This document shows positions 8,370 to 44,716 of a stretch of 64,000 nt of DNA, piece by piece. Where the stretch lies: positions 97,400,135 to 97,464,134 of the forward strand of contig CM054180.1 in assembly GCA_028829895.1 (NCBI GenBank), given 5' to 3'. Below the pieces are notes generated by a model, which was given only the letters and a program-made list of their open reading frames with translations, did not search any database and was not told where the DNA came from. The position numbers were made by a program, and so were the translations under genes. Position 1 is the first letter of the stretch; every line of letters begins with the position of its first letter. This DNA comes from Sinotaia quadrata (taxonomy: Eukaryota > Mollusca > Gastropoda > Architaenioglossa > Viviparidae).

Positions 8370-9012
8370 CTTAACAGGTAAACAGGTAAAAGGAAAGGAA
8401 AAAAAGAAAAGTAAACGGGTAAACAAATAGACAGGCAAATAGGTAGAGTGGTAAACAGGTAGACAAACAGGTAGACAGCCAGAAAGGTAGACAGGCAAAT
8501 GGGTAGAAAGGTAAACAGATAAAAGGTTAAACAGGTAGACAGTCAAACATGTAGAAAGGTAAACAGGTAGACAGACAAACAGGTAGAAATTTAAACAGTT
8601 AGACAGGCAAACAAGTAGGAAGGTAAATTAGACAGGCAAACAAGTAGAAAGTTAAACATGTAGACAGGCAAATAGGTAGACAGGCAAACAGGTAGAAATT
8701 TAAACAGGTAAACAGGCAAACAGGAAAAATTTAAACAGGTAGACAGACAAACGGGTATAAAGGTAAACTGATAGAAAGTTAATCAGGTAGACAGGCAAAC
8801 AGGTAGACTGGTAAACAGGTAGATAGTCAAACATGTAGAAAGATAAACAGGTAGACAGACAAAAGGTAGAAATTTAAACAGGTAGACAGACAAACAAGTA
8901 GAAAGATAAAGAGGTAGACAGGCAAACAAGTAAAAAGATAAACATGTAGACAGGCAAACAGGTAGAAATTTAAACAGGTAAAAGGCAAACAGACAAACAC
9001 GTAGAAAGGTAA
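8370..9012. repeat. Degenerate short-unit minisatellite (aggtagacaggcaaac family)
   Basis: More than 600 bp of imperfect 16-bp and 32-bp combinations of aggtagacaggcaaac and aggtagaaaggtaaac. No stable higher-order period is obvious. Long open frames read from it on the minus strand are repeat artefacts. Confidence 0.88.
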
Positions 9013-9014
9013 AC

Positions 9015-9960: not shown

Positions 9961-11387
9961 ATTCTCTCAGTATCGTTAAAAATTAACAGATAGAATTGTG
10001 TGAACAGTGACTGCAGTAACTCGGTCTTATGAATGTAAGGATATGGTAGAGATAGTAGAGATATGTCATTCTGATCTCACAATATGGCAGATTCACTGAA
10101 GATTATATAAAAACTAAATTAATGTACAAGAATATTTCACTGAAGAAAGTTACTTATGAACTGGCTAGTGATTATTTACAATTTCTGGACGATATTTCTA
10201 TAGGCTTTCATTAACTAGTTCATAGGGAGGGGAACCAAGGGTTATGGTAGAGCTGAAAGCTCTGACGTCACATGCTAAAGGGAGTTCTTTTGTAAATACC
10301 ACTAGTGACGCAAAGTACATCTGAATCTCCTAGTACAGTACTTCCCAAACTTTCTCAGTTCACAGCGACCTTAGAGCATTCGGATATTTTCCATGGCGTC
10401 TTATAGTGTGTGTGTGTGAGAGGGGGGGGGGGGCAGTTTTGTCTCCCTTGAAAATTTAGAATATCCCAGAGTGCCCCTGTGAATTAAAAAAACACTGTCT
10501 ATTTATGACGTTCATTAAAGAGAGGGATGTGACTTTATAATAATGAATTTTACCAAATATTTGCTACATAATTAAGGATGTAACACATCTACCGAGTGCC
10601 GATGTAAGGTATAGACTACTGGTTATAAATAGATTTATACGCAACTGTTACTCCAGTAATCTATGTGACGCTGCCGGTCGATTTGACTCACACACCCCAC
10701 CCAGTAACAGACTGAGAGAAAAATATAAAATAGATGTGTTGAGAGAGGAAGAAGATGTAATAATACTATTCATACAATTTCCGACAAAGAGAAGTTATGC
10801 AACACTAACAGATACGCAAGACGGAAAAGTTTATTCATCTTTAATTCCCACACACAGCATAATAAATACAAAATATAAATTTTATGAGCTAGAAACAATG
10901 TCAAATGTTTAGCATACTATATACTAGCATCTTAGTTCAAAATATGTAGAAATAATAGACTACTCGCATAAAGCATCTCTACGTAAAACACAAGCATAAC
11001 ATATCGATAGCAAAATGCACGAAATATTTCTAAGTCCATTCTCTCTCAATCAATCGGTTAACTCACAATTAAGCAAATGGTTGCCTCTCATGCCGGTCTC
11101 TAAATTCAAGTGACTAAACTGTAGAATTCTCTACAAAATGGAAACTTTTCATCTCAGCCCATTGGTCTCCTTCCCGTAAATTGTAACCATTGGATTAAAA
11201 AAACTACTCTTCCAGTTGGAACTATCTTGGATTCCATCAGTAATTTCTAGCATAAATCTCAACTCGGTTTGTTTACTCCAATTCTGACGCCTACAGAAAT
11301 GTCATCATAAGCAATGCCCAAGGTCGGATCACTTCGATAATTTAACAATTTATATGACAATTAAGTCTAGAAATAAGGATAGGCAAA
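9961..11387. other. Duplicated noncoding DNA upstream of lectin gene A
   Basis: This matches copy B 26816-28000 over most of its length. Copy A has about 260 bp (10405-10668, including a TG tract and a G homopolymer near 10428) that is replaced in B by about 20 bp. The stretch cagtacttcccaaactttct near 10340 resembles the end of a hAT-type DNA transposon, but no matching far end was found. No gene is visible. Confidence 0.45.
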
Positions 11388-11424
11388 TTCTATCTATCTA
11401 TTTATCTCTCTATCTATCTATCTA

Positions 11425-11460
<36 letters not shown>

Positions 11461-11595
11461 CATCCATCCATCCATCTTTCAATTTATCTATCTATCTATC
11501 TATCCATCCATCCATCCTTCAATTTATCTATTTATCTATCTATCTATCTATCCATCCATCCATCCTTCAATTTATCTATCTATCTATCTATCTAT
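11388..11595. repeat. TCTA/TCCA tetranucleotide microsatellite with higher-order structure
   Basis: (TCTA)n runs alternate with (TCCA)3-4 blocks and the spacer ttcaattta, giving a higher-order period of roughly 45-50 bp. Copy B retains only a short TCTA stretch at about 28003-28045. Confidence 0.92.
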
Positions 11596-11850
11596 TATCT
11601 TATTTGTTCTATTATTTAAACCCCTTTATTTACTGTACTGTATATTTCTTTCAGTGAATGATGAGGTGATAAAATATGGTCTTGGATGTATAATTCATGA
11701 CAGAGGAGATCTGGACTATACTTGCTTACCGGAACACAACTATCGTAACTAGAGGACTGTCGTCTGTTCAACCGTTTTTTCCACAAATAGAAGTGGAGCG
11801 TGTTGTTCTTATTCTTATTCTTATTAATGATGTTATTATCTTGATGTGGG

Positions 11851-12048
11851 ATTGTACACAAAACACAGTTTAATCAAAATGCATTACGATTTTGTATTTA
11901 TTGTACACAAAACACAGTTTAATCAAAATGCATTACGATTTTGTATTTATTGTACACAAAACACAGTTTAATCAAAATGCATTACGATTTTGTATTTATT
12001 GTACACAAAACACAGTTTAATCAAAATGCATTACGATTTTGTATTTAT
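11851..12048. repeat. 49-bp minisatellite, four copies (copy A)
   Basis: Units of tgtacacaaaacacagttta plus aatgcattacgattttgt start at 11853, 11902, 11951 and 12000. The homologous array in copy B (30318-30563) has five units. Confidence 0.93.
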
Positions 12049-12402
12049 TATTGTCTGGACTAGTCGTTCTCTAACATCAACAACAATGTTATACGGCGAA
12101 AAAAGAAACACACAGGTTACTGTTTCATGCATATTCAATAACCATCTCTGCCATTTAAATATAAAGGAAATTATGAAAATATTTTCCACTGTACACATAG
12201 ACATTGTCTGTCGTCATAAATAAACATAGATTTGCAATCAACTCAGAAAGCAACCTAGCGTTAGTTAATAAATTGCGTAGATTCAGAGACTGAACAGAAT
12301 CTCATATCTTTAAAGGAATGACTATCTTTTAAACGACACTAGTCAGTCAGCTTCTAATTTCAATTGATTACGCGTGTCCTGTGTGTAGAAACAGTTAATG
12401 AA

Positions 12403-12409
12403 TATATAA
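12403..12409 (+). promoter_or_regulatory. Candidate TATA box of lectin gene A
   Basis: TATATAA lies 101 bp before the predicted start codon at 12510 and is conserved with its surroundings in copy B (30913-30919). Placement is compatible with a short 5' untranslated region. No transcript evidence is available. Confidence 0.3.
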
Positions 12410-12509
12410 TGAAAGATCATTGTAATCCCAAGTAGTTTTAAAAGCAGATAGATAGTTAAAATGTTCATTTTAGCCGGAGCCATCAGAGGCTTACATATAA
12501 GACATAAAC

Positions 12510-15500
12510 ATGCGTGAAATATTGCTAGTAGAGTTTGGAATTTGGTTGTGTTTATTTCCAGTATGGTGCTCCATTTTTGTATGGTTTGTACAACTCATTT
12601 AATCAGTATTTAGGAAGTCAGCTTATCCGTTCATGCAAGCGTTATTTATTGTTGGAATACACGTTTTATTGTTTATTATTTGTTTGTATTAGCTGTTAGT
12701 GTAGTGTGTGTTTTAGTTGTTGAAATGTATGAATGTTATTACATTAGCTGTTAGTGTAGTGTGTGTTTTAGTTGTTCAAATGTATGATTGTTATATACTT
12801 TATGACATTTACATCAATGATATTTACATAAATGATACTTTGACACTCGATTAGATTCATTATCAAAGCATTTAATGTGTTAACCTATGTGTTACGTATG
12901 CTACACAGCTTTACACATACGCAAAACGCATGAATTCACTCAGGTAAACACATAAACACGCACAAACACGCACATATACACATACAATCTCACTCACACA
13001 CGCAAGCACGTACGCAAACATAAATAATATTCATGAGGGCTAATAGGCTGTAGTCAATATAGGAGTATTGTGTGACGTAATGCAAGACATGTAGTCAATA
13101 TAGGAGTATTGTGTGACGTAATGCAAGACATGTAGTCAATATAGGAATATTGTGTGACGTAATGCAAGACATGTAGTCAATATAAGAGTATTGTGTGACG
13201 TAATGCAAGACATGTAGTCAATATAGGAGTATTGTGTGATGGAATGCAAGACATGTAGTCAATATAGGAGTATTGTGTGACGTAATGCACGATATAGCAA
13301 ACTGGCTGTAGTCAATATAGGAGTATTGTGTGACGTAATGCAAGACATGTAACAAAATGAAAAGTAAAGTAACGGTCCGATTTTAATTGTCACTTGAATT
13401 CATTGTAGTGGTGACAGTATCAAATGGAAACGTGATCCTGCGTACGACAACATAATCATCACAGGTGGACACCCGTATGAAGATGTCGTCAGCGTTGTTA
13501 GCAAACCACTCTGTGCTTCGTATTGCTCTCAGCACTCCTGGTGTAGTTCTTTTTTTTTCTCCAAAACATCAAGACGCTGTCTACTGAACTGGCATGTCTT
13601 CTCCACGAATTCCAGTGGGGTGACGTCACCAGGATCTCAATACTATGTTGCTGTCAATGGTTCAATCACCTTTGATATTTATATTGCTTGTTTGTGCTGT
13701 ACAACTCTAATTTAATATTAGATGTTGTTTGGATAATATATATTAATTCATTTTAAATTATATGAAATATATAATTATGTAATAATAATAATTTAAATAT
13801 ATGTGGTGTCAAATTTTAATTTAATGTAGGATGTTGCTTTAATATATAGATTACTTAATTTTACAATATAAAATATAATTATATAATAATATATATGTGG
13901 TGTAAAATTCTAATTTAATATTAGATGTTGCTTTAATATATAGGTTACTTAATTTTAAAATATGAAATATATAATTATATTTTTGTATTACTTTGTAGAT
14001 AATTGTACCATCACGGACGGTTATGTATGGGTTCGCGGAATGAACTTCTGCTTCAAACCATACAACACAAATGCAACATTCTACTCTGCGAAATCCATGT
14101 GTGAGAACAACACTTCACAGCTTGTCACGTTGGAAACAAAAGCCAAGGCTGCAATGGTGACAAGCTACGTGAGAAATATCTGTGAGTGTTGTAATGAAAT
14201 ACAACTTCTACTTGAAAGTTATGCGCGATGTGTTTTTCACTTTTTCTATTATCCATGTACAATAATTTATAAATAGATTATTTAAAACTCATATGCGTTG
14301 AATAAAATATATTTCGATATTTATATATTGTAGAAAATCAAAAGTGACCTTCGTGTTTCTATTGGTTAAGTTTATGTCAAACTACTAAAAGTTGTCAACA
14401 GAGACAGACTAACTGTGACGATGATGTCATTAAATTGTGAAAATAATATTCGTATAAAATGTATAAGATATAATAATTAATTTGTGTATGCTATTGCACA
14501 ACACTATATTGTGAGTTGTTACTAGCATCGAATACTTGTGTTTTTAGACAAGGTATTACCTAAGGTCTGTCAGTAAGAAAGAGAACACTCTAATACTTGT
14601 GTTTTTAGCCAAGGTATTACTGATGTCTGTCAGTAACAAAGAGAACACTCGAATACTTGTGTTTTTAGCCAAGGTATTACTGATGTCTGTCAGTAACAAA
14701 GAGAACACTCTAATACTTGTGTTTTTAGCCAAGGTATTACTGAGGTCTGTCAGTAACAAAGGTAACACTCGAATGCTGTTACGAAATAAATCGCGAATGA
14801 ATATTATGACATCCTTTGTCGAACACTTTTACGCAGGGGGTTTGCATGCATGTATCCTCCCAGACATAGAATACACAAACATACAAACATACAAACACAC
14901 AAACATACAAATACACAAACATTCAATACACAAACATATAAATACATAAACATACAAATACACAAACATACAAACACACATGCCAGTTTAATGATCGTGT
15001 GTCCTGTAAATTAAGTTGTTGTGATTGTCTGACCTTTTTATTAGTTACACTACGACCACTTAAGTAAGATTAAAGTCAGGTGTTTGACTAAGAAGAATGG
15101 TAACTGCTCCGTTGAAGAAAACTGGCCCTAAATTAAATTTGAGTCAAGAGTATGTTTGACGTGTGTGACTGACCACTTGTGACGAAGGGATAAGTGACCG
15201 GAAGCAAATACAGTAATTACTTTCATATGGGTTACAAGCGAACTTTCTTTAGCAGACGATTTGAACAAAAGCCAACGGAAAACCAATGATTATTTAGAGA
15301 AGAAAGCTCCAATATACAACCATATATTAACTCAGTCCATAGATGATAAAGTGTTATCAGAATGTTACATACAAATCAAAATAAATCATACTGTCACAGT
15401 CTGATAAAAATGTCATGACTTTCCGACCCACTTGTTTACTTCAAATATTGAGATTTGAAAACCCTTTGTGTAAGTTCTCTCCTATCGAGAAGCTTCCAGA

Positions 15501-18500
15501 AAGAGGTCATGGACATTATGTAACTCTTAGGCCATTGTCTAGATTCTCGAACCAACCACATACTACGTGACCAGTCACGTGATGCACCTTATGATTTTTA
15601 ATAAATATGCGAGCGCACCCTATTTTACTCACTCCGAAAAACTAGAAGCCAGCCGTAGTACTGATGTTTTCGTGCTGTCGCTATTCGTTGAGTCACATAG
15701 GAAGCCGACGCGATCAATTGAGATAACACCTCGATTTCTCACTAAGGTATTGAATTTATTTAATTGTATTTTGCATTGTTGAATATGGATGTGATTTTTG
15801 TGCTATGCATTGCTATTGTAGCCTAAGCACGGTTCGTTGTTAAATGACTAAAACCTATAAGTTATTGTATATAAATTCATTGTAACTTTTCTCATTGTAA
15901 CTTTAATTTATATAACTACAAATTCACTAGAGCCAGGAGCGCTGTGCTCGACATGAATTTCCTTTGTAATTCGAATTATTGCTTGTAATTTTAATGTAAA
16001 TTGTAAAGCGCTTTGCTTAATTCGAATTGTCCTTTGTATGAACTCTAAAAGTTTAACGTTGTAAATGTTTAGCAATTCATACGTCATGCTTGTTAAACGT
16101 AACATGTGTGAGATTATATTTCTAATCTAATTGTAAACACGCCAGTCGAGATTCTAAACTCAAGCATTTAAAGCTAATCGTGCTTAGGTTAGGCGAATTT
16201 AAACAGAGGACGATTATGGAGACGCTCTTGTTCCAGGTCGGCACCCAGGTTCACGCCTATACCTATGTCTGTGAGTCCTATCTTGGGATCCACGCATTGC
16301 CAGGTTCCAACTCTCGGAGACTGAGTTGATAGTCCTACCACCGTGGGGCATCGTAGACGAGCAGGTCTGCATGTCTAACTTCTACACTCACAAGTCCGTA
16401 CAGTGGGTTGACTTGAAAGACAGTTCCATTGTTATGTGGTGTGCGCATTCTACTGACGGCAAGAAGTGAGGTAGAAAACCGGTCTGGACGGGATCATTGA
16501 ACCTACACGTGGCAACCTTTGCAAGATAAGTTACCTTTGAGGGTGACAAAAATCATTAGAACTCATACACGGCACTATTCTCGTAACTATTAGCACGTTG
16601 CTTATCGAGCTCTTAGAATCAGACTTTCGTGCTCGTATCTTGAGTAATTTGTTAATTGTTAAAGTTATTAAATCTTATTTCATCTTGTTAAGAACCTCTT
16701 TTTGTAGTAATTTGTATGCATATAGACCAAAAGATGTGGATTGGATGGGAGCTGTTTGAGCTAAGCGAATGACGTAATGAATGCATATGAATCTAAGAGA
16801 GTTTTTAACGATTTCCAATCTAGCTAATGTACGCAAATTATCAGTTCGTAAATCTGTGATCTAGACTACAAAGATGCATTTTTAATTTAGTCGAATGATG
16901 ATTTGAGCAACCAGTCTGTTTAGGTTAAACGAGGGGGAATTAATTTAGATAGTAAATTAAAGTTCTATAATTTCCTAAGCAGGGTCTCTAAATAAATACT
17001 GGAAACGTAACACATACCAACACAGACTATATATTTCTTATAATGTGTCCTGTGAAAAATCGAGTAAATCCTATCAAGTGAGTATGTGATCCTCGTAATG
17101 TGACGTAAAAATCGAGTAAATCCTATCAAGTGAGTATGTGATCCTCGTAATGTGACGTAAAAATCGAGTACATCCTATCAAATGAGTAGGTGATCCTCGT
17201 AATGTGACGTAAAAATCGAGTAAATCCTATAGTGAACAAAGCATGTGGTACATTGTCACTCTGAGTGACGAACAAACAAACCAGCCCTTGCATGCATATA
17301 GAAAGTAACAGGAGGCATTTTCAAAGTGTTTAAGTTTGGTCCCTTTTATTCAAAGTCAAACGAATGACTTTTCAACATAGGAAGCTGGAACATATTCTTC
17401 ACAAACCTTATTAAAAATAGCTTTGCTGAGAGATTGTGAAATCATATTTCTTACCTGAAATTGTAAAGTTTATTTCAGGTTATTATTCGATTTGTATTTC
17501 AAGTATTCAAATTGTATGTGTAAGGGAAAAGATTTTTCTTGTAAGTAAAACATTTCTCTCAGCAAACTGAGATTAACAGCAAAAAATAAAGACAATTAAC
17601 ATTATCAGAAATAAGTTTTTCCTTTTGTAGCACTATTTATGTTATCTTCTACTGTGACGTAGTCTGCATTCAAAATAGTTAGGACGAGCAAACTGAAGTG
17701 GTGTGCATTCAAAATAGTCAGGATCAGCAACATGACGTGGTCTGCATTCAAAATAGTCAGGATCAGCAACATGACGTGGTCTGCATTCAAAATAGTCAGG
17801 ATCAGCAACAAGACGTGGTCTGCATTCAAAATAGTCAGGATCAGCAACATGACGTGGTCTGCAATAGATTGTTTACCCTTCATTTAGGACCTATCATAGT
17901 TCGGATGAGATGAAGTCAATATTTAACCCTTTAAAGGGAATTTAATTATAAAATAAGACAATTGATCAAAATAGAAGTAAAGCTATATCGTCCAGATGGA
18001 TACAACTAATTTCCAACTCGTTGGCATGACAACAAGAGAAGGGATTAGTGCGTATAAATAAGCATAAGCAATGTCTTTCTGAGTATTTAGAGCTTATCTT
18101 CCTCTTTAGTTGAAGAAAGAGTTGCCCTTGGGTGTTTGGACGATGGCGTTCCTTGTCAGTTGGCTCAGAAGAAAAGGGTGTGGTTAGGTGTCCTCACGCT
18201 GGGCAGGTAGTCTTTAGATATGGCGATTAAATGGAGGGTCACGGCAGAACTATTCTCAGCTGAGGTCCTCTGCACAAGACGCCAGAGTGAAGATAATAAA
18301 AGTTCTCTTTTAAGACATTACCTATGATTGTACGTCTAAGTGACGTCATGTTTACTCATTCAGACGAATTTACAGAGGAAAGGAAAGTGGGACAAAGCTT
18401 TTACAATCGCTCAGAAATTTAGGGTAACTTTATACCGGTAAAAAAAAAGCATATGGATATATATAAGTGATAAATACATATAAATGCATGAACAAGCTGC

Positions 18501-20507
18501 AACATTAAGAAAGAATTCCTTTTCTAATAAATAACAAGAGAAACCACGAGACTGATCTTTGCCTGTCAGTAACTGAATTGTAACATTCAGATTTCTCACA
18601 AGTCCACAAATTTATAATTTCATACTGTCTGGGAAATGTTGCTACATGTGTTTTGTCACTGTAGAAGATGTAGGTGTGGGTCCAAGGCTGTCTAATTACA
18701 TTTTCTCTAGCTCACACTATTTAAGTTTTTTAACATTAGCTATCCAGATTTTCTCTAGTTCACACTATTTAAGCTTTCTAACATTAGCTATCCAGATTTT
18801 CTGGGTGACAAGCTCAATATCCAGCTCTAATGTCCATCGGCTACGTGTATGACCCAATCTTATGAACACTTATATATATAACGAGTAGCAATGGAAGCCG
18901 TGAAGGATACACTGCAGATGGTATAACTGAGATTGGGAAAGCCAAAGGCTGAGTTAATTAATTGATAGAAGTTAAAATGTTGAGTTTGAAATCACTATTT
19001 TTATAATGATTTAGAATAATAAAGTTAAAATATTATTACTAACTAATTATTATGAAGCTTTAAAATATTATTACCTAAATTATCATTAAAGGTTTAAAAT
19101 GCTATCATGCGGGGAGATAAATCCATTAATAATTTTAATAAAACAATAGAAGGTGGGAGCATAGTCACAAAATAAACAAATGGCAAACTACTACCTAAGA
19201 GACAAAAAACCAACTGCATAAAATAATAAGTTCATAATGTAAGATTTATTAGAAAGTGTGTGATTCAACCAAGTTTACAGCCTACCCGAGTTAAAGTAAG
19301 AAGGACGAGTTGCACCAAAGAAAATAAAAACAATGAATATAAGAATTCTAAAAGAATTGTTTAATACATTTCACAATGGTACTGAACTAAGTTTTCATTG
19401 TGTTGGGGCTTATGTCACTTTTTGTTCTTGTTAATGTCACGCTCACACAGACAGAAGCATCCTGTCAAACTCGTGACGCGGTCATACGCATTACATGATC
19501 ACAACATAAATTTTGTTGTACTCGTGACGCGGTCATACGCATTACATGATCACAACATAAATTTTGTTGTACTCGTGACTCGGTCATACGCATTACATGA
19601 TCACAACATAAATTTTGTTGTGACTCGGTCATACGCATTACAATGATCACAACATAAATTTTGTTGTACTCGTGACTCGGTCATACGCATTACATGATCA
19701 CAACATAAATTTTGTTGTGACTCGGTCATACGCATTACAATGATCACAACATAAATTTTGTTGTACTCGTGACTCGACTGAAGTTGGCGGGCGATGAAAA
19801 TCTAAGTCAACGGTTTTAACGTGTTTGATGAAAGAAACATTTGGTGGAGGATTAAGTATGAAAGAAATGTTTTGCTGACATATTTAGGGTGTGTATACAT
19901 TACTGTTACAATTCTTCCAAAACAATTTTATCTCACAGAGCAAGAATTATTGGGAAGCAGCTTGAATAGTGTCAAAAGATCCATTTTCAGTAATTTTGAT
20001 AATACACGATTGAAACAATAATTAGTGTCCTGTTAAAGTTGACATAAACTTCACCAACCAGATTATTACTGAGAAAAATATGAAAGTTAAGTTTGCAAAA
20101 TTAATTTTAGTATCTGAATTTATTTACAAACTGGTTGATTTAAGACATACGTTTCAAAGTGTTAATATTGCCAGTTATATTGATGTTTCTTGCATCGTTT
20201 GATGAAGGAATATTTCAGTTTAACATTTTCCACATTATCATTAGAAGATAAAAATTAAGAGTGGAGTTTAAAATCTACCAGTTTCGTGCAGATGCCATGC
20301 TTTTAAATAAAGGAACTTTGAGGAGACAATTTGTTTGGTGTTTTTTTTTTTAAATTAGTGTTTCACTACGGTCTCTTACTCCATTTTCTACTTCAGAGTT
20401 GTCTAATCTTACCCAAGCTTTTGCCTGTGTAATATATTTTTATGTTTGATGTTTGAACCACTATTATTCTACTTCGATAATTAAACCTATGTATAAATAT
20501 ATACACA

Positions 20508-20567
<60 letters not shown>

Positions 20568-21058
20568 TACTTACATACATTTAGAGAGAACTGTGACTAT
20601 TTATGCTTTAAGTTCCTTCCAAATCACACATTTTCAAGAATTGCTATACAAGAAAGAAAGTTCTAATCAATTCGTACTGTTTCGGAATAACGATACAACC
20701 CCTCTCCCCCACACGCATTCAATCCAATACATACAATTTCACAATGACTATACTAGAATCAAAGTGTACACAAAGAAATTATCTGCTCTTAGATGGCTCG
20801 AGCTTCAAGATCTATCTCGGTGCAGCACGACCAGGTGTGTTGGACGGCAGTCGTACGTCTTGTAATGCTGCAGAGAAGACTTTCACCTGGTTCCGGGGAA
20901 TGCCTGTTGATGTGAACGGCCCAAATTCCAACTGGAACGCGTATGAACCGAATTGTAGCCTTGGCATTGAATCATGCGTGGAACTGATAATCTCTGGGTT
21001 ATTCAATGATGTACCGTGCGATTTCTTGAAATATTTCATTTGTGAAAAACTTATTTGA
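12510..21058 (+). CDS. Secreted PAN/apple + C-type lectin domain protein, copy A
   Basis: Four exons: 12510-12583, 13409-13659, 13999-14181 and 20793-21058. They join in phases 2, 1 and 1 into 774 nt, 257 residues. Exon 1 encodes a hydrophobic start consistent with a signal peptide (LCLFPVWCSIFVC). Exon 2 encodes an apple/PAN-like module with Cys60, Cys64, Cys70 and Cys82. Exons 3-4 encode a C-type lectin domain: Cys111, Cys126, Cys143, the WFRGMPV strand (202-208), Glu221-Pro222-Asn223, Phe-Asn-Asp (240-242), Cys231, Cys245 and the ending FICEKLI. In this family EPN is usually linked to mannose-type, calcium-dependent sugar binding, so a secreted recognition role is likely; that is inference. 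Residue 193 is an extra cysteine absent from copy B. The exon 2 donor (GTTCAA) is weak, but the shared exon lengths in both copies support the model. Intron 3 (6.6 kb) carries a solo LTR. Confidence 0.82.
12690..12790. repeat. Two-copy repeat in lectin intron 1 (copy A)
   Basis: The segment ttagctgttagtgtagtgtg is repeated once with its flank, about 54 bp apart. Copy B has a diverged doublet at 31198-31300. Confidence 0.7.
13048..13350. repeat. 41-bp minisatellite in lectin intron 1 (copy A)
   Basis: About seven units of tagtcaatataggagtattg followed by tgtgacgtaatgcaagacat, with one interrupted unit near 13290. Copy B (31539-31840) has a similar array, with substitutions such as gacgtgatg shared among neighbouring B units. 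Confidence 0.92.
14540..14790. repeat. 60-bp minisatellite in lectin intron 3 (copy A, four units)
   Basis: Four units with ttttagccaaggtattactg and ggtctgtcagtaacaaagag, period 60. The homologous array in copy B has expanded to about fourteen units. Confidence 0.93.
14865..14985. repeat. ACAAACAT-type simple repeat (copy A)
   Basis: Irregular alternation of acacaaacatacaaa and similar octamers. The copy B counterpart is at 42015-42135. Confidence 0.85.
15392..17012 (+). mobile_element. Solo LTR of a Gmr1-like Ty3/Gypsy relative, with target duplication CATAC
   Basis: The 1621-bp segment begins TGTCACAGTCTGATAAAA and ends CTGGAAACGTAACA. The full-length element at 32769-41043 has the same ends when read on its coding (minus) strand. 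Similarity continues inwards, for example cgaaccaaccacat near 15550 and agtcacgtga near 15573. The 5 bp before it (15387-15391) and after it (17013-17017) are both CATAC. No internal region remains, so it arose by recombination between the two LTRs of a lost element. It is diverged from the complete element and therefore older or from another subfamily. It lies in intron 3 of lectin gene A, in the gene's orientation. Confidence 0.9.
17056..17235. repeat. 52-53-bp minisatellite, three and a half copies
   Basis: Units with aaatcgagtaaatcctatca and tgatcctcgtaatgtgacgt. The array begins about 40 bp after the solo LTR. Confidence 0.88.
17660..17862. repeat. 39-bp minisatellite, five copies
   Basis: The unit tgcattcaaaatagtcagga with tcagcaacatgacgtggtc recurs at 17665, 17704, 17743, 17782 and 17821. 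The period is divisible by three, so it creates open frames on both strands that are not genes. Confidence 0.92.
17863..19474. other. Intron 3 of lectin gene A, no further gene seen
   Basis: AT-rich intronic DNA present only in copy A. It includes a two-copy 48-bp repeat at 18704-18806 (cacactatttaag...acattagctatccag). No coding or transposon signal is evident. Confidence 0.5.
19475..19780. repeat. 51/44-bp minisatellite
   Basis: Units built from gactcggtcatacgcattac and gatcacaacataaattttgt. Some units keep the tactcg junction (51 bp) and some lose it (44 bp); the short type appears twice between long ones. Confidence 0.9.
20505..20562. repeat. (CA)n microsatellite
   Basis: A nearly pure CA run about 230 bp upstream of lectin exon 4 in copy A. 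At the corresponding place copy B has only short CA-rich sequence followed by a 1.1-kb insertion. Confidence 0.93.
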
Positions 21059-21254
21059 AATATTTTAACTGCATATTTAAATTGCAAAACAATGTATAGC
21101 ATAAGAATAGCGTGGACTGCTGTATATTGTCTTCTTGTATTCGCGTTGCATTTATTTATTTATTTTTTATCGTTGAAAAACTAATCTAATTCTCACTTTT
21201 TGTCGCCATAGGACTTACTCACACAATATTTATTTGTCATAGGACTTACTCTCA

Positions 21255-21560
21255 CACAATTTTAAATATGTTAGAATCCCCATCACCAAAAACCCTGTAT
21301 ACCTTAGTTTGCTCAACTGATCTTTCAAAAATCTCACATGTACCGCTTGCTGCCATTGACCGACTAGAAACTTCTTGTGTCAATGTGCAGTCTGCGCCAT
21401 GTGTGTCGGCCCATTTTCTATGCTTTTCAGTGTTGGGATCTTCTTTCTTCCAATAGTCACATGACTTACAGACTTTGCTTTTTTCTTGAGTGTCAAGAAC
21501 CTCTCCAGTTTTCATGCCAATAGTTGTCACAGCACCTATTCAAAAACTTGTCTGAAGTGC
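21255..21560 (-). pseudogene. Mutator-like (MULE) transposase fragment, copy A
   Basis: Minus-strand translation gives a cysteine/histidine-rich stretch: TGEVLD, then C-X2-C-X2-W, EDP, W-X3-H-X3-C, SSRSMAASGTCEIFERS and FGDGDSNIFK. This order matches the transposase domain of metazoan Mutator-like elements, including the GDGDS segment that holds a catalytic aspartate. Only about 95 codons remain, with a stop just upstream, so it is a fossil. It lies about 200 bp after the lectin stop codon on the opposite strand and is shared by copy B, so it was there before the duplication. Confidence 0.65.
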
Positions 21561-22557
21561 ACAAAACTAGGGAGTAGCTTATTATTTTGGATTTCCATTG
21601 CAAGCGGTTATTGTTTATTTGACATATTGCTAGCTGATTGAATGTTGTTTTACGCCATTCTGATCATTCGGATGCCACCCCTACTCTGTTAGATGGCATT
21701 ATCTCAAAAACTACATCATTGTGGCAAATATTATAAACAACAGATGAAAGACAAATGATTTCGAAATGAAATGACACATGTTCTTTTACTCTTTTGAAAA
21801 ATGATTTTTTTTCCCAAAAAATCTGGGTGACTGTCGCCTTAATTGTCTTGACATAGGTCAACAAATAAATATTCATTGTTTGAGGCACTTACTAGATATT
21901 AATGAAGTAAAAACAAACCACAAGCAGATGAATATATCTTTGTGATAATTATGTAACAATTGTATCCCGAATCTTATGGACTATCTTGAATATCCCATAT
22001 TTTGCATAAGTGTATGTTTATTGTTGTTTAATGGAAAATATAATTCATTTAACCAAACTCTGTTTAATGTTTCAATCTGTACAGTATGTTCACATCATCC
22101 GGACATACAGCCTGTCAGTTCGTATTGTCATCTGAACAACATATGTGTTATATGAGATTTGTATTTATTTATAATTAATATTATATTTGTGTGTGCGCAT
22201 GCTTATGTCTGTATGTGTAAGTGTGTATGATATACATGTAAGAACACATTTTAATTGTCTTTCTGATTAAATTGGCACAAAGACATTATTTCCTCACTGT
22301 CTGTATGTACTGTGAAATCTTATTAAGTGTTCGATAGATTTAACTTCTCTAATCAAAGAAATTATTAAAATCACGTGATCGTACACTAACAACTTGAGAG
22401 TAGAAGTTGTTTGCAGACTCTGCTTAATACGAAGCTGGAATTTAAAATAAAGAATTTCTATTAATTATTCTCTTAACTCTCTTAACAACTGATTCTTATT
22501 ACACGTAGTTATATATTTATATATCTACTAAAACACTTAAGTCTTTAAAACATTTCT

Positions 22558-23020
22558 GTCGCTAAGGTATATGTGTCCCTAACACTGATGTCCTTAAAAT
22601 ATATCTGTCCCTGAGGTACATGTGTCCCTAACACTGATGTCCTTAAAATATATCTGTCCCTGAGGTACATGTGACCCTAAACACTTTTCACAAGTTGAAC
22701 ACATGTCGTAGCTATTCGCCACTAACCAAATGATGCCCAGGGATTTTAAAGGAATTAGTGAGAACCAAGAAACGAAGAGCAAAGAAGCTGTTGACTCGTG
22801 AAAAGTTCCTGTATAAGAATCCTGACTGAGCCCATTGTCTCTCTCTCTTTAACAATTCACCAGATTTATCTTAATATTATGGGGTTCCATTATTGTCTCT
22901 CTCACTTTAACAATTCACCAGATTTATCTTAATATTATGTGATTGAATTATTTGTCTCTCTTTAACAATTCTCCAGATTTATCTTAATATTATGGGATTC
23001 AATTATTTGACTCTCTCAGC
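22558..23020. repeat. Short minisatellites at the right edge of copy A
   Basis: A 53-bp doublet (gtccctaacactgatgtcct at 22572 and 22625) lies at the duplication edge. After it comes a three-copy repeat of about 56 bp at 22826-23015 (tttaacaattcaccagattt). Confidence 0.8.
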
Positions 23021-25582: not shown

Positions 25583-25784
25583 CAGTGACTTTAAAATAAT
25601 GTAATACCTTATATTCTGCACTTGTTAAGTGCATTACACATGTACAAACTGCCAATGCGAATTATGGACTAATGGTTATAAATCTATGAATCAGAAACTG
25701 TTAAACTGTGTGGTCGATTAATTTGTCTTTCCTTGTTTCGGAACTTAATTGTTATGTGGATTGTAGACAGATAGACAGGCAGAG

Positions 25785-26815
25785 GAGAAGAATGAAGGAG
25801 TGATGGGGAAACACAGATGGCAGACAAAACAGGAAATTGATGGAATAATATGGGAGTTCATAATGGTGGCTACAGTAAAAAGACAGAACTGTAAAACGTA
25901 AACTCAGGTTTCTAACTGATTGCCAAACTATATGATGGAAGCATCACCAATGTTGATTGACAGAGAAAAGGATTTAGAAACTCTTTTAGAAGTAAACAGA
26001 ATGATTTCGGTTTATTCTGTAGTCGTTTATAATTTATTACTTATCTTCCAAAACTTAGCAAAAGAATCACGGCTCAACAATTTGGTGGAATCAATTTCAT
26101 TTCAGGGTACGGCTATGCATGATTTAAAAAGGTGGATCGAGAAGACAGCACTTCTAGACACCAAACAAAGATTGTCTGGTTTTACCCACACACTTTGTAT
26201 TCTGTGAGACAGGCATGACTGTTGGTACCAAGGTTATCATCTCCAATAGCTGTGAATACATTAAGGGGTATAGTTCTCAAGAGTGCAATAGCTGTGAATA
26301 CATTAAGGGGTATAGTTCTCAAGAGTGCAATAGCTGTGAATACATTAAGGGGTATAGTTCTCAAGAGTGCAATAGCTGTGAATACATTAAGGGGTATAGT
26401 TCTCAAGAGTGCAGATAAATCAAGAAAGGGTGTTAAGTGTAAATTTTCTGTTATCAAACCAGAGAGCAGATCATTAACATGCCTTATAAGAACAGTTTCA
26501 GTACTGTGATAGAGGCAGTATGCGACTGAAAAGCACCGAAAATATTATTTTAGATAAATGACTTTAGATAAATAGCAAACCGAAATAGGACAGCCTTTAT
26601 CGATTAACTCTGAATGTAGAGACTGTAGATATTTTTTTCCAAGTCCTTCGGGTTAAAGGTTGGTTTCTTAAGAACGGGCATGATAATAGGTGCTTTAATA
26701 AATGATGAGAAAAAGGCAGTGAACGAGAAAATTCAATATCCATTGGAGATGGTAAGATAGCGTCTGAACTCTCATGCAGAGGCAATGTTGATAAAGTGTT
26801 AAGTTGATATGACTC
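25785..26815 (-). mobile_element. Decayed LINE reverse-transcriptase fragment, copy B
   Basis: On the minus strand, YHSTETV (26491-26511) leads into IRHVNDLL and then PFLDLSALLRTIPLNVF, the equivalent of the LDLSAAFDTIDHNIL segment of CR1/L2/Jockey-type reverse transcriptases. Stops and frame breaks surround it. The segment coding TIPLNVF is amplified fourfold (see the 42-bp array). Most A/B differences in the overlapping plus-strand frame change the amino acid, which argues against that frame being a gene. Confidence 0.62.
26245..26415. repeat. 42-bp minisatellite inside the LINE fragment (copy B)
   Basis: Four units of aatagctgtgaatacattaa and ggggtatagttctcaagagtgc. Copy A has a single, slightly different unit at about 9497-9563, so the array grew after the duplication. 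Confidence 0.93.
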
Positions 26816-28049
26816 TCAGTTATATTCTCTCAGTATCTTTAAAAATTAACAGATAGAATTGGGTGAACAGTGACTGCAGTAACTCTGTATTAAGACTGTA
26901 AGGATATGGCAGATCACGTGGTAGAGATATGTCATTCTGTTCTCACATTTTGGGAGATTCACTGAAGATTATATAATAACTAAATTAATATACAAGAACA
27001 TTTCACTGAAGAAAGTTACTTACGAACTGGCTAGTGATTATTTACAATTTCTATAGGCATTCATTAACTACTTCATAGGGAGGGGAACAAGGGTTACGGT
27101 AGGGCAGAAAGCTCTGACGTCACATGCTAAAGGGAGTTCTTTTGTAAATACCACTAGTGATGCAAAGTACATCTGAATCTCCTAGTTCAGTACTTCCCTA
27201 ACTTTCTCAGTTCACAGCGACCTTAGAGCATTCGGATATTTTCCATGGCGTCTCATAGTGCTTCTCCAATAAACAAGGTGACGCTGCCGGTCGATTTGAC
27301 TCACAAGCCCCACCCAGTAATAGATTGAGGAAAAAATATAAAATAGATGTGTTGACAAATAGAGTGTATTAATACTATCCCTACAATTTCCGACAAAGTT
27401 ATGCAACGCTAACAGATACGCAAGACGGAAATAGCTTATTCATCTTTAATTCACACACACAGCATAATAAATACAAAATATAAATTTTATGAGCTAGAAA
27501 CAATGTCGAGTGTTTAGCATATTATATACTAGCATCTTAGTTCAAAATAAGAAATAATAGACTACTCACATAAAGCATCTCTACGTAAAACACAAGCATA
27601 ACATATCGATAGCAAAATGCACGAAATATTTCTAAGTCCATTCTCTCTCAATCAGTCATTTAACTCACCATTAAGCTAAAGGCTGTCTTTCATGACCGGA
27701 CTTCTTGCCACTCTAAATTCAAGTGATTAGACAGTAGAATTCTTTACATAATGGAAACTTTTGATCTCAGCCCTTTGGCTGTCTCGTTCCCGTAAATTGT
27801 AACCATTGGATAATAAAACCTACTCTTCCAGTTGGAACTGGCTTGGATTCCATCAGCAATTTCTGGCATAAATCTCAACTCGAGTTGTTTACTCCAACTC
27901 CAACTACAGAAATATCATCATAAGGAGTGCCCAAGGTCGGGTCACTTCGATAATTTAAAACTTTATATGACAATTAAGTCTAGAAATATGGATAGACTAA
28001 ATCAATCTATCTATATATCTATTTATCTATCTATCTGTCTATCTGTGGC
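26816..28049. other. Duplicated noncoding DNA upstream of lectin gene B
   Basis: Counterpart of copy A 9961-11400, with indels. It ends in a short TCTA/TCTG microsatellite at about 28003-28045. No gene seen. Confidence 0.45.
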
Positions 28050-30173
28050 ACTTCAAGGTTCCTGATTAATTAATTGTAAATCTCTATCTGGGAAATCATA
28101 TCTTTAATCCATACGCAAATAGGATTCTTCCACTCGATCAATCAATCAGTCACCCGACAGGGTCTTGGTCTTGTGGTCAAGAGTGAGTAAGTCTGGCCTT
28201 GAAAGGTCTACCCACTGGTTAACTCCTCTCTCAAGCGTTTTTTGTCTAGAATAACAGATTCCACAGTACTATCTTGTCCATCAATCTGTCCTTCCTAGCC
28301 CTTCCACAATTCCTCATTCCGAAGACAGGAACTATCCTAAAACTGTGTAACCGGCTTTCTGTGTGTCATTACGTCATTAGCATGCCCCCACCTCTCATCT
28401 ACACATGTACCTCTCTACTACAATAAAAGAGTGGATAGTTTAACAATTCAACAATTTTATTAAAGAAAGAAAAATAATAATATTAACTCATTTACAATTT
28501 GGATAAAACTATAACCACACTAAGGCAATTTCAGATTTCATAACACTTCCCTCATTAACTGAGCAAATTAGAAGAATAAAAATAATCATTAATTTTATCC
28601 CCTAAAACAATTATTAGGAAGATACATACACAAATCAATATTAATACCTTTCCCAGAACAATTACTAGGCTTCACAAAAATCAAGTATCAATATTTCTAG
28701 GCTCTAAATAGTCAGAATAAGAAAAGAATAAGAATTAGAAATTATATTAATCATAGAACAAATACAGGTTACACATGAATATGTCTATGATTCACCTGAT
28801 GGTTTGCATGCATCATTCCCCGGTTTGCGTGGCTGTTGCGTCAGCCACTGGTTATCTGCATTAGCCTTTTCACACTGATGAAATGTTCAAGAGTTCAGTT
28901 CCATAAAGATCACAGTTTCGTTATTAATCACACAGACACTGTCATAAATTAACATACAGTCTGGTGTAATTCCAGTTCCACAACACTTCTTAGTAAACCA
29001 CACTTGGAATACATCAATTCAACGTTCAGTCACTTTACTCCCACTGTTTGGTACATCCGTTCATAGCCTGCCCACTCGATAGTATGCCTAGTCATATGGA
29101 CATTCCCATAGCACTGCTAATTCATCATAGTGTGCCCATTAGGAAACGGCTTACTGTCACAATTACCAATTGTGGTCTGCATAACCCGCTCTGGCGTCCT
29201 TTCTCCTTAGTTCTGGCTTGTAGTACCTTAGTGACTGTAGACTTTGGACCAAGGTGACATATACAGGGCCAATTAAGATGAATTTGCATTATACAAGGTG
29301 TTCTTGCCTGGACCTTGTTTGCTGGAACTCTTGTCTTTCATTGTCATTGTCTTTTTTTGTTGTTCTTTGTCCCTCGAAGCTGCAAAAATATATAAGGGAT
29401 TTTTCACACATCAGCTTTGTGTTACAATACCACAAAAACCTGTAATTTCATTCTTGGTTCTCATATTAAAGTCCTTTTAATTAGTTATTTAATTTCTTTT
29501 CTTATTACCAAGAATAACATTACAGTTTTTCCAAATCATTTTAAAATACAATATTAACAAGAAAAATACAATTTTCAATAAGTATTTCACAAAAATTCAA
29601 TATTTACAAAAATCATGTTTTACCATATCAGACATTTGTACTGGTACTGCTCTTTTCACAGCAGAGGGACATATGGGTCAATAATAAAAATCGAGTAATA
29701 ATTTTCTGCCCAGTTGGGGTATATATAATGTTTGTGGTTCGCGTCTTGATTCTTAACCTCAGGACATAAACTTCCCCTTGTCTTGCCCTTTGTTGAATAG
29801 TCACGGTTGGCTGGCTGTACTCAAAGACTGTTCTGCTAGGGCCAGTCTTGTGCCTTTAGAAGATGACCAACTTTTGTTCAGGTACCATTGCATTCGCTGT
29901 GATGTGCGTGTGATTATGCAATCAGCGCATTTTTTCATTGCATCCATTCTCAAAGCGTCTTGCCACATGACTGCTTCTATTCAACTCAACCGCTTTGAAC
30001 CTTTAATCTTTAGTCAAGATCAAAGTTGACTGTCTGAAATTTCGAACACGGTTTTCTACACAGCAAAATTCAGAATGGCTTTTGCGGTGACTATTATTAA
30101 AGTTACAGCATCAAAGAATTTTGTTCAGTAATTCAACTTTATATTTTGAAAAAATATTTTGTGTATTTGTTCT
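28050..30173. other. 2.1-kb segment specific to copy B, unidentified
   Basis: Present in copy B between the TCTA microsatellite and ctggactta near 30174, where homology with copy A (ctggacta near 11713) resumes. Copy A has only about 120 unrelated bases here. The A-rich stretch with a minus-strand AATAAA near 28455 would suit the interior of an LTR, but I found no TG...CA ends with a target duplication. No protein domain is recognisable. Confidence 0.5.
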
Positions 30174-30317
30174 GGACTTACTACCTGCTTGTCAGAACCT
30201 ACCCCCGTCGTAACTGAAGGACAGTGTGTTCATCAACCTTTTTCTTCCACATGTAGAAATAGAGCATGTTGTTCTTGTCCTTATTCTTATTACTGATGTT
30301 ATTAGCTTGATGTTGGA

Positions 30318-30563
30318 TTGTACACAAAACACAGTTTAATCAAAATGCTTTACGATTTTGTATTTATTGTACACAAAACACAGTTTAATCAAAATGCATT
30401 ACGATTTTGTATTTATTGTACACAAAACACAGTTTAATCAAAATGCATTACGATTTTGTATTTATTGTACACAAAACACAGTTTAATCAAAATGCATTAC
30501 GATTTTGTATTTATTGTACACAAAACACAGTTTAATCAAAATGCATTACGATTTTGTATTTAT
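30318..30563. repeat. 49-bp minisatellite, five copies (copy B)
   Basis: Same unit as 11851-12048, with one extra copy. One unit carries atgctttacg instead of atgcattacg. Confidence 0.93.
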
Positions 30564-30912
30564 TATTGTCTGGACTAGTCGTTCTCTAACATCAACAACA
30601 ATGTCATACGGCGAAAAAAGAAACACACGGGTTACTGTTTCATGCATATTCAATAGCCATCTCTGCCATTTAAATATAAAGCAAATTATGAAAGTATTTT
30701 CACACACATCAACATTGTCTGTCGTCATAAATAAGCATAGATTAGCAATCAACTCAGAAAGCAACCTAGCGTTAGTTAATAAATTGCGTAGATTCAGAGA
30801 CTGAACTGAATCTCATATTTTTAAAGGATTGACTATCTTTTAAACGACACTAGTTAGTCAGCTAATAATTTCAATTGATTACGCGTGTCCTGTGTGTAGA
30901 AACAGTTATGAA

Positions 30913-30919
30913 TATATAA
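30913..30919 (+). promoter_or_regulatory. Candidate TATA box of lectin gene B
   Basis: TATATAA in the same context as in copy A, 101 bp before the start codon at 31020. Confidence 0.3.
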
Positions 30920-31019
30920 TGAAGGACCATTGTTATCCCAAGTAGTTTTAAAGGCAGACAGATAGTTAAAATGTTCATTTTAGCCGGAGACATCAGAGGC
31001 TTACATATAAGACATGAAC

Positions 31020-34000
31020 ATGCGTGAAATGTTGCTAGTAGAGTTTGGAATTTGGTTGTGTTTATTTCCAGTATGGTGCTCCATTTTTGTATGGTTTGTT
31101 CAACTCATTGAATCAGTATTTAGGAAGTCAGCTTATCCGTTCATGCAAGCGTTATTTATAGTTGGAATACACGTTTTATTGTTTATTATTTGTGTGTATT
31201 AGCTGTTAGTGTAGTGTGTGTTTTAGTTGTTGAAATGTATAAATCGTATGTACATTAGGTGTTAGTGTAGTCAGAGTTTTAGTTGTTGAAAGGTATAAAT
31301 GTTATTACATTATTTAAATGACATTTAGATAAATGATACTTTGACACTCGATTAGATTCATTATCAAAGCATTTAGTGTGCTAAAACCTATGTGTTACGT
31401 ACGCTACAGAGCTTTACACATACGCAAACGCATGAATGCACTCATGTAAACACATAAACACGCACAAACACACTCACATACACATACAAGCACACTCACT
31501 CACACGCAATCATGATATTCATGAGAGCAAGCAGGCTGTAGTCAATATAGGAGTATTGTGTGACGGTATGCAGGACATGTAACAAACAGGCTGTAGTCAA
31601 TATAGGAGTATTGTGTGACGTGATGCAAGACATGTAGTCAATATAGGGGTATTGTGTGACGTGATGCAAGACATGTAGTCAATATAGGAGTATTGTGTGA
31701 CGTGATGCAAGACATGTAGTCAATATAGGAGTATTGTGTGACGTGATGCAAGACATGTAGTCAATATAGGAGTATTGTGTGACGTGATGCAAGACATGTA
31801 GTCAATATAGGAGTATTGTGTGACGTAATGCAAGACATGTAACAAAATGAAAAAGTAAAGTAACGGTCCGATTTTAATTGTCACTTGAATTCATTGTAGT
31901 GGTGACAGTATCATATGGAAACGTGATCCTGCGTACGACAACATAATCATCACAGGTGGACACCCGTATGAAGATGTCGTCAGCGTTGTTAGCAAACCAC
32001 TCTGTGCTTCGTATTGCTCTCAGCACTCCTGGTGTAGTTCTTTTTTTTTCTCCAAAACATCAAGACGATGTCTACTGAACTGGCATGTCTTCTCCACGAA
32101 TTCCAGTGGGGTGACGTCACCAGGATCTCAATACTACGTTGCTGTCAATGGTTCAATCACCTTTGATATTTATATTGCTCTTGTGTGCTGTACAACTCTA
32201 AATTTAATATTAGATGTTGCTTGGATAATATGTATTAATTCATTTTAACATATGAAATATATATTTATATAAAAATAATTTAAATATATGTGGTGTGAAA
32301 TTTTAATTTAATATTAGATGTTGCTTTGATATATAGATTATTTAATTTTAAAATATGAAATATATAATTATATTTTTGTATTACTTTGTTTGTCAGATAA
32401 TTGTCCCATCACGGACGGTTATGTATGGGTTCGCGGAATGAACTTCTGCTTCAAACCATACAACACAAATGCAACATTCTACTCTGCGAAATCCATGTGT
32501 GAGAACAACACTTCACAGCTTGTCACATTGGAAACAAAAGCCAAGGCTGCAATGGTGACAAGCTACGTGAGAAATATCTGTGAGTGTTGTATACAACTTC
32601 TACTTGAAAGTTGTGCGCGATGTGTATTTCACTTCTTCTATTATCCATGTACAATAATTTATAAATAGATTATTTAAAACTCGTATGCATTGGATAAAAT
32701 ATATTTCGATATTTACATATTGTAGAAAATGAAAAGTGAGCTTCGTGTTTGTAATTTTTGTTTATGTCTGTTACGTTTCCAGTATTTATTTAAAGACCCT
32801 GCTTAGAATAATTAAAAGACTTTAAATATAATTAATTCTTCCTCTCATATTCTACGCAGACTGGTTGCTCAATTTATTATCTGACTAATTAAAAGTGCGT
32901 CTTGTAGTTCAGACGACAAATTTACAGACTAATAAACTGCGAACTTTTAGCTAGATTTGAAAACAGTTAAATCCCTCTAAATTAATATGCACTCGTCATC
33001 AATCTTTCTGCTCATCCGCCCCCATTCAAATCTAAGAATTAATCTAATTGGTCTATTGTGCATAGAAATCAACTACTAAGAGGTATTAACAAAGAAAATA
33101 AGATTTAATAAAGTTTAACAAATTAACAATAAATCGAATGCAACGCGAATAGTCTTCACTCTGTCTTTACGCGCCTATGCCTGATTTTTGTCAATCTAAA
33201 TTGCCAGAAAAGTGTTCCTTTGAGATCTGTACACTTGATCTTGCACTTAGCTCTATTCTTGTATCCTTGGTCTCAACACTCAGTCATGCTGATTCGTTCC
33301 CTCAGTCCCCCTTTAACGACACACGTGGTGCATAAGGAATGATGTCCCTTTGTTAGTGGCTAGGAACTGGAATTTTTGCAGCATGGCCCTCAGAGTGGAT
33401 TTCGACACGCTTACACCAATAAGCTAATGCAGGTGAGGCATGGGTGAACATGAACCATGAGCCGACCTGTGGATGCAACGTGTTTGGATATAATTCTCAA
33501 CCTAACAGGTCCTACCTAGGCATGGCTCAATTAAATGCGCTGAACAAAGAGTTTCGACCTCGCGTCGCTTACAATTAAATTTTAGAAAAAATATAATCGT
33601 CTCACATGTGTTCCATTTAACAGTCATGACGTATGAAGCAATAAAATAGATACAACGTTAAATTAATGTTCATACAAGAGGTAATTCAAACCGACAGAGC
33701 GCTTCACAATTTACAATTAAAATTACACGCAATAATTGAATTACATGAAGAATTCATATCGAGCGCAGCATTCTGGCTCTTAGTGAATTAAAACAATATA
33801 AATTAAAGTACAGAAATGGAAAAATGGTTACAATAAATTTATATTCCGTAACATATAGGTTTTCAGCTATTTCTCTGAACCATGCTCAAGTGTATATGGA
33901 AATCATATAATACATAGCACAAATACATACTTAAACAATACATAGGCAAATACTATTAAATAAAATGATACCTTTGAGAGAAGTCGAAGGGTACCTTGAT

Positions 34001-44301: not shown

Positions 44302-44483
44302 AATATTTTAACTGCATATTTAAATTGCAAACAATGTATAGCATAAGAATAGCGTGGACTGCTGTATATTTTCTTCTTGTATTCGCGTTGCATTTATTTA
44401 ATACATATTTATCGTTGAAAATCTAATCTAATTCTGACTTTTTGTCGCCATAGGACTTACTCTCACACAATTTTTAATATGTG

Positions 44484-44705: not shown

Positions 44706-44716
44706 TATTCTGATCA

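What the first reader, a model, noticed from the sequence alone, without database searches (positions are those of the whole stretch)
20793..21058. Exon 4 of the duplicated lectin genes diverges fast and mostly at amino-acid-changing sites
Seen by hand alignment of 20793-21058 with 44036-44301: about 24 base differences in 266 (9%), about 20 of them nonsynonymous, giving 15 replacements. Exons 1-3 (508 nt) differ at only 6 bases. The exon's own noncoding flanks also look more similar than the exon (roughly 3-5% substitutions by eye). Seven of the 13 residues from 218 to 230 differ, while EPN (221-223) and the cysteines of this segment are unchanged. In C-type lectins this is the calcium and sugar-binding loop. 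I infer diversifying selection on ligand specificity; gene conversion keeping exons 1-3 alike is a second, compatible cause.
Basis: partly seen in the sequence, partly recalled or inferred. Interest (0 to 1): 0.78.

Follow-up and report, generated by a model that had tools for sequence, protein, structure and literature searches.

The report
Snail lectin duplicates with diverged loop
Two neighbouring copies of a snail-like sugar-binding (C-type lectin) gene are nearly identical except for about 37 codons around the predicted sugar pocket, which fits ordinary retuning of what the two lectins bind but does not prove it.

Summary
The count is right: exon 4 of the two copies differs at 24 of 266 bases, 20 nonsynonymous, 15 replacements; exons 1-3 differ at 6 of 508. 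Each gene encodes 257 aa (hydrophobic start, PAN domain, C-type lectin domain) inside a tandem duplication. Closest hits: four Pomacea canaliculata paralogues.

The exon-wide reading fails. Noncoding divergence is 6.4%; exon 4 (9.0%) is not significantly above it (P 0.096), and its 5' intron flank is at 10.3%. Exon-wide dN/dS is 1.5-2.0, not above 1 by counting (P 0.15-0.33).

A narrower signal survives. Codons 170-211 look constrained (about 0.35); codons 212-248 hold 18 of 24 differences, 17 nonsynonymous, while five calcium/sugar ligands stay. A site model supports a class above 1 (0 of 400 simulations as extreme), but this vanishes without four multi-hit codons, and a scan-corrected test on changed codons gives 0.11. 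Differing sites are those that vary among the Pomacea paralogues.

Best reading: duplicated lectins diverging at the ligand rim around a fixed calcium core, probably by selection; relaxed constraint and patchwise conversion stay open. A known kind of event; interest modest.

The parts
12510..12583 (+). copy A exon 1 (start, hydrophobic signal-like stretch)
   Evidence: open frame and GT donor, weak match; gene model inferred
13409..13659 (+). copy A exon 2 (PAN domain)
   Evidence: PF00024 match, splice sites inferred
13999..14181 (+). copy A exon 3 (first part of C-type lectin domain)
   Evidence: PF00059 match, splice sites
20793..21058 (+). copy A exon 4 (rest of C-type lectin domain with EPN 221-223, and stop)
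20921..21028 (+). diverged patch in copy A exon 4, residues 213-248: 18 of the exon's 24 differences
31020..31093 (+). copy B exon 1
   Evidence: 1 difference from copy A
31900..32150 (+). copy B exon 2 (PAN domain)
   Evidence: 3 differences from copy A
32397..32579 (+). copy B exon 3
   Evidence: 2 differences from copy A
44036..44301 (+). copy B exon 4
   Evidence: 24 differences from copy A
9009..22575 (+). duplication unit of copy A (outer limits of matching pieces; with insertions)
   Evidence: self-comparison
25763..47843 (+). duplication unit of copy B (outer limits of matching pieces; with insertions)
   Evidence: self-comparison
32769..41043 (-). LTR retrotransposon inside intron 3 of copy B (not part of the gene)
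   Evidence: LTRs, ATGTC target duplication, domains

Best explanation
A tandem duplication in a gastropod-like genome gave two secreted PAN plus C-type lectin genes. Purifying selection holds the PAN domain, the first part of the lectin fold and the calcium site, while residues on the rim of the predicted sugar site (codons 212-248) have diverged faster than neutral DNA, so that the two proteins probably keep calcium-dependent binding but differ in ligand preference. Shown: paired open frames, domains, clustering of differences, kept ligands. Inferred: splice sites, secretion, that selection drove the change, that ligand preference differs.
For: Codons 212-247: 17 nonsynonymous and 0 synonymous differences, P 0.004-0.014; codons 170-211 dN/dS about 0.35. 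Omega for 212-248 at fixed neutral rates of 4.6, 6.7 and 9.0%: 5.5, 3.7, 2.8 (P 1e-7, 2e-5, 6e-4). With one neutral rate shared by all exons, exon 4 omega is 3.1 and omega 1 is rejected at P 0.008. M2a over M1a in exon 4: 2dl 12.8, 0 of 400 simulations as large. Of 94 pseudo-exons cut from the noncoding alignment, 0 have N>=20 with S<=4 and 0 have a 37-triplet window with N>=17 and S<=1 (largest 13). E221, N223, E229, N241 and D242 are the same in both copies, and residue 225 aligns with His189 of MBP-A, which stabilises bound mannose by stacking (figure legend in PMC10377782). Exon 4 sites that differ are more variable among four Pomacea paralogues (3.07 vs 1.93 residue types, P 2e-4), which fits recurrent diversification but also weak constraint.
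Against: The site-model signal falls to 2dl 0.03 without codons 218, 225, 226 and 247. Counting changed codons rather than bases, the best cluster (218-230) has scan-corrected P 0.11 in exon 4 and 0.30 over 257 codons. The largest pseudo-exon value is 2dl 12.65, next to the observed 12.8; 4 of 94 pseudo-exons have as many multi-hit triplets and 20 of 94 as many changed triplets. With the 10.3% of the 5' flank as neutral rate, changed codons in 212-248 are not in excess (P 0.21). Patch bounds were chosen after seeing the data. No DNA of further paralogues.
Confidence: 0.5

Rival explanations
1. Weak constraint: the loop residues other than the calcium ligands are nearly free to change, and they drifted at the neutral rate, which varies locally; the rest of the protein is conserved. 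No change of ligand was selected.
For: Whole-exon dN/dS not above 1 by counting (P 0.15-0.33); exon 4 divergence equals its 5' flank (P 0.79); scan-corrected P 0.11; the differing sites are the variable ones among Pomacea paralogues.
Against: The nonsynonymous rate in 212-248 exceeds the noncoding rate (omega 2.8-5.5); 18/108 against 299/4694 noncoding, P 2e-4; no noncoding 37-triplet window like it among 94 pseudo-exons.
Confidence: 0.28
2. Short-tract gene conversion from an unseen third paralogue replaced part of exon 4 in one copy, importing several changes at once, including the multi-base ones.
For: 18 of 24 differences lie in 108 nt (clustering P 0.008); 6 adjacent pairs of differences in exon 4; 4 multi-hit codons (P 0.034 from the noncoding rate); four paralogues share one contig length in Pomacea, so a gene family is likely.
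Against: 0 synonymous against 17 nonsynonymous differences in codons 212-247, not what a neutrally diverged donor would bring; by Pomacea, changes point to both copies (5 A-like, 4 B-like, 3 both, 3 neither of 15); no third copy in the window.
Confidence: 0.15
3. A few multinucleotide mutation events in exon 4, with ordinary single changes around them, mimic selection.
For: Dropping the four multi-hit codons removes the site-model signal; double changes inflate this test (PMC6332903, abstract and passages).
Against: Adjacent differences are hardly commoner than chance in noncoding DNA of the same copies (22 pairs, 19.0 expected), and all four multi-hit codons fall within 30 codons of the ligand region.
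Confidence: 0.07

Closest known systems
Pomacea canaliculata LOC112575436, LOC112575664, LOC112575868, LOC112575662
   Different: NPD or NPS in place of EPN; no cysteine at 224; W at 193 in all four where copy A has C. Pfam list for LOC112575436 shows PAN only
Mannose-binding protein A and surfactant protein D (collectins)
   Same: EPN loop and five site-2 ligands align without gaps to residues 213-254 (MBP-A); ligand numbering of E193, N205 and D206 is recalled, E185, N187 and His189 are named in PMC10377782
   Different: Here a PAN domain precedes the lectin domain; the collagen stalk of collectins is recalled. The positions that differ between the copies align to MBP-A 177, 182-184, 189, 190, 192, 194, 201, 207, 208 and 211
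Biomphalaria sudanica C-type lectin receptor BSUD.12903
   Same: Snail lectin with nonsynonymous diversity above synonymous in the extracellular lectin and immunoglobulin region (PMC10875847, passages)
   Different: It carries immunoglobulin, FN3 and membrane parts, and the signal is polymorphism within a species; here paralogue divergence and a PAN domain
Haliotis snaclec-like proteins P0007 and P0008
   Same: Related by profile search; C-type lectin Pfam domain listed for both, PAN for P0008
   Different: 24-27% identity and no EPN in the printed sequences

Membership tests
C-type lectin domain (PF00059) | profile match above curated cut-off | tested here: met
   48.5 and 51.2 bits against 22.6, on a rough splice of exons 2-4
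C-type lectin domain (PF00059) | EPN motif and calcium site 2 ligands | tested here: met
   E221, N223, E229, N241, D242 in both copies, aligned to MBP-A
C-type lectin domain (PF00059) | calcium-dependent sugar binding | not testable with these tools
   needs protein
C-type lectin domain (PF00059) | fold | tested here: inconclusive
   model of the relative P0002 has mean pLDDT 52.4 and was not used further
PAN domain (PF00024) | profile match above curated cut-off | tested here: met
   26.2 and 25.9 bits against 21.4
Snail CREP (immunoglobulin-type plus C-type lectin) | immunoglobulin-type domain | tested here: not met
   only PAN and lectin families matched at E up to 1; CREP definition from passages of PMC10875847
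Exon under positive selection | dN/dS above 1 for exon 4 | tested here: inconclusive
   counting P 0.15-0.33; codon model P 0.0006 to 0.35 by neutral yardstick; site model significant but dependent on four codons
Gmr1-like Gypsy element (insert in copy B) | integrase upstream of reverse transcriptase in a Gypsy-type element | tested here: inconclusive
   order CCHC, protease, integrase, RT, RNase H shown; definition from passages of PMC6238403 and PMC8220671; no tree made to show that the RT is Gypsy

The most novel reading that the evidence does not exclude
The genome holds a larger bank of PAN lectin genes whose exon 4 is repeatedly overwritten in short patches from sister genes, so that the ligand loop is diversified like a cassette while the calcium core and the first three exons stay fixed.
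Probability: 0.06. Interest if true: 0.6.

Novelty: new member of a known kind. Interest (0 to 1): 0.3.

Why it matters
If the rim of the pocket is really under selection, this pair is a compact natural test of how a lectin changes its ligand while the calcium chemistry is kept: 15 replacements in one exon of an otherwise nearly identical protein. Two searches of the open library for PAN-domain C-type lectins in gastropods or molluscs gave no papers, so the family seems little studied; roles in recognising microbes, parasites or gametes are guesses. In kind it is ordinary: loop divergence among duplicated C-type lectins is a familiar event (recalled; one snail precedent seen).

Tried and rejected
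Exon-wide positive selection: not supported by counting or against noncoding divergence. Gene conversion as the cause of similar exons 1-3: not needed (dN/dS about 0.3; silent divergence 3 in about 119 sites, P 0.05 against 6.4%), though not excluded. A third copy in the window: none by tblastn with the two window proteins and four Pomacea proteins. Structure: the model of P0002 on a six-row alignment was too poor (mean pLDDT 52.4), so no fold search was run and positions were mapped by sequence alignment to MBP-A only. Pomacea loci by name in the literature: no papers. Three protein searches gave nine related proteins in all and no DNA of further paralogues.

Rows and columns left out: P0005 to P0009 were not in the site-variability and polarity counts (P0005 and P0006 partial, P0007 distant, P0008 and P0009 found later). 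The divergence counts leave out tandem-repeat columns, columns within 3 of a gap and columns of local identity under 0.70, which lowers noncoding divergence; 4694 columns stayed. The pseudo-exons leave out triplets that read as stops and reuse the same columns in three frames and two strands, so the 94 are not independent.

Label to note: the line called 212-248 covers 20921-21028, that is residues 213-248; residue 212 does not differ.

Full report
What is there. Self-comparison of the window shows a tandem duplication, matching pieces running from 9009 to 22575 in copy A and from 25763 to 47843 in copy B, with insertions in both. Each copy holds a four-exon gene on the + strand: A 12510-12583, 13409-13659, 13999-14181, 20793-21058; B 31020-31093, 31900-32150, 32397-32579, 44036-44301. 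Both read as 257 aa without an internal stop, with AG and GT at the inferred splice sites; the donors of introns 1 and 2 are weak matches, so the model is inferred, not shown by RNA. The protein has a hydrophobic start, a PAN domain (PF00024, 26 bits) and a C-type lectin domain (PF00059, 48-51 bits), the latter split between exons 3 and 4.

Relatives. The window is therefore likely from a gastropod (inference); the species is not known to me. Among solved structures 32 sequences match, mostly collectins, over about residues 196-254 at the best.

The observation. Exon 4 differs at 24 of 266 bases, 20 nonsynonymous and 4 synonymous, 15 replacements; exons 1-3 at 6 of 508. That part of the finding is exact. 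The comparison with the flanks is not. After masking tandem repeats and gap edges, noncoding DNA of the two copies differs at 299 of 4694 columns (6.4%), with 10.3% just 5' of exon 4 (18/175) and 4.1% 3' of it (40/978). Exon 4 at 9.0% is not significantly above these noncoding columns (P 0.096) or its 5' flank (38/388 taken together, P 0.79), but is above its 3' flank (P 0.0026). Of overlapping 266-column noncoding windows 11% hold at least 24 differences.

Where the differences lie. Codons 170-211 carry 3 synonymous and 3 nonsynonymous differences (dN/dS 0.31-0.39). Codons 212-247 carry 17 nonsynonymous and none synonymous; the next codon, 248, has a synonymous one. In 108 nt (20921-21028) lie 18 of the 24 differences; clustering P is 0.008 for a 108-nt window, 0.14 for 60 nt and 0.03 for 40 nt, and the run of 17 nonsynonymous differences has P 0.016. 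No 106-column noncoding window holds more than 17. These bounds were set after seeing the data.

Tests of selection. Counting gives exon 4 dN/dS 1.5-2.0 with P 0.15-0.33; 15% of codon bootstraps have dN at or below dS. Codon likelihood depends on the neutral yardstick. With exons 1-3 and 4 sharing one neutral rate, omega is 0.23 and 3.1, equality is rejected (P 8e-8) and omega 1 for exon 4 is rejected (P 0.008). For exon 4 with a fixed neutral rate of 4.6, 6.7 or 9.0%, omega is 2.5, 1.7 or 1.25 (P 0.0006, 0.035, 0.35); for codons 212-248 it is 5.5, 3.7 or 2.8 (P 1e-7, 2e-5, 6e-4). M2a beats M1a in exon 4 by 2dl 12.8, and 0 of 400 simulations under the M1a fit do so; but dropping the four codons with two or three changes (218, 225, 226, 247) leaves 0.03, and dropping codon 247 alone leaves 7.3. 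Double and triple changes are a known source of false positives in this test (PMC6332903, abstract and passages; PMC9500374, outline and abstract only, argues that doubles in primates and yeasts mostly reflect mutation bias). In this duplication noncoding differences are close to independent (22 adjacent pairs, 19.0 expected); 4 or more multi-hit codons in 88 has P 0.034 at the noncoding rate.

Two further controls. Scoring each codon only as changed or not, against the noncoding triplet rate, the best cluster is 218-230 (7 of 13), but its scan-corrected P is 0.11 within exon 4 and 0.30 over 257 codons. Cutting 94 pseudo-exons of 88 sense triplets from the noncoding alignment (three frames, two strands, so not independent), 0 reach 2dl 12.8 (largest 12.65; 4 reach 5.99), 0 have N of 20 or more with S of 4 or less, and 0 have a 37-triplet window with N of 17 or more and S of at most 1 (largest 13); but 20 have as many changed triplets as exon 4 and 4 as many multi-hit triplets. 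The pattern is at the edge of what neutral DNA here gives: suggestive, not decisive.

Function by position. Both copies keep E221, N223, E229, N241 and D242, which align without gaps to the site-2 ligands of MBP-A; the residues that differ within 213-254 align to MBP-A 177, 182-184, 189, 190, 192, 194, 201, 207, 208 and 211 (numbering set by E185 of the EPN motif). His189 of MBP-A stabilises bound mannose by stacking and EPN is tied to mannose preference, though CEL-IV with EPN binds galactose (PMC10377782, passages and legend). So calcium binding is likely kept in both copies while the pocket rim differs; EPN alone does not settle the ligand. Copy A has cysteine at 193 where copy B and the four Pomacea paralogues have tryptophan; with C224, present in both copies and not in those four, copy A could form an extra disulphide (inference).

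Family pattern. Exon 4 positions that differ between A and B hold on average 3.07 residue types among the four Pomacea paralogues, the others 1.93 (15 and 70 columns, P 2e-4). This fits recurrent diversification or free drift at the same sites and cannot separate them. By Pomacea, of the 15 exon-4 replacements 5 are A-like, 4 B-like, 3 both and 3 neither, so change is not confined to one copy, but the outgroup is distant.

Verdict. The best reading is divergence of the ligand rim around a fixed calcium core after tandem duplication, probably selected. A snail C-type lectin with replacement diversity above silent diversity is on record (BSUD.12903, PMC10875847, passages), and most gastropods examined have more than 100 C-type lectin-like proteins (PMC10140915, passages). 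Searches for PAN with C-type lectin in gastropods or molluscs gave no papers; the library lacks most subscription journals.

Noticed in passing
window 32769-41043: Young LTR retrotransposon in intron 3 of copy B: 1547-bp LTRs with one mismatch, 5-bp target duplication ATGTC, one open frame on the minus strand (34540-38886) with domain order CCHC, protease, integrase, reverse transcriptase, RNase H; integrase before RT is the order reported for the unusual Gmr1 clade of Gypsy elements.
   Followed up: partly
window 15392-17012: Stretches 75-77% similar to the same LTR in the opposite orientation lie in intron 3 of copy A, probably a decayed relative, in a part of the intron without a counterpart in copy B.
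   Followed up: no
window 21059-22419 against 44302-45554: The 3' flank of exon 4 is less diverged (40/978) than the other noncoding columns (259/3716), P 7e-4; conversion or constraint, not resolved.
   Followed up: partly
window 13362-13408 and 13660-13688: The 47 bases before and 29 after exon 2 are identical in both copies, so the conserved block runs past the exon.
   Followed up: no
window 41096-41913 and 14528-14774: A 60-bp tandem repeat in intron 3, about 14 units in copy B and 4 in copy A; the window has 113 tandem arrays covering 13.8 kb.
   Followed up: no
residues 193 and 224 of copy A (exon 4, 20793-21058): Cysteine 193 (W in copy B and four Pomacea paralogues) together with C224 gives copy A a possible extra disulphide.
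   Followed up: partly
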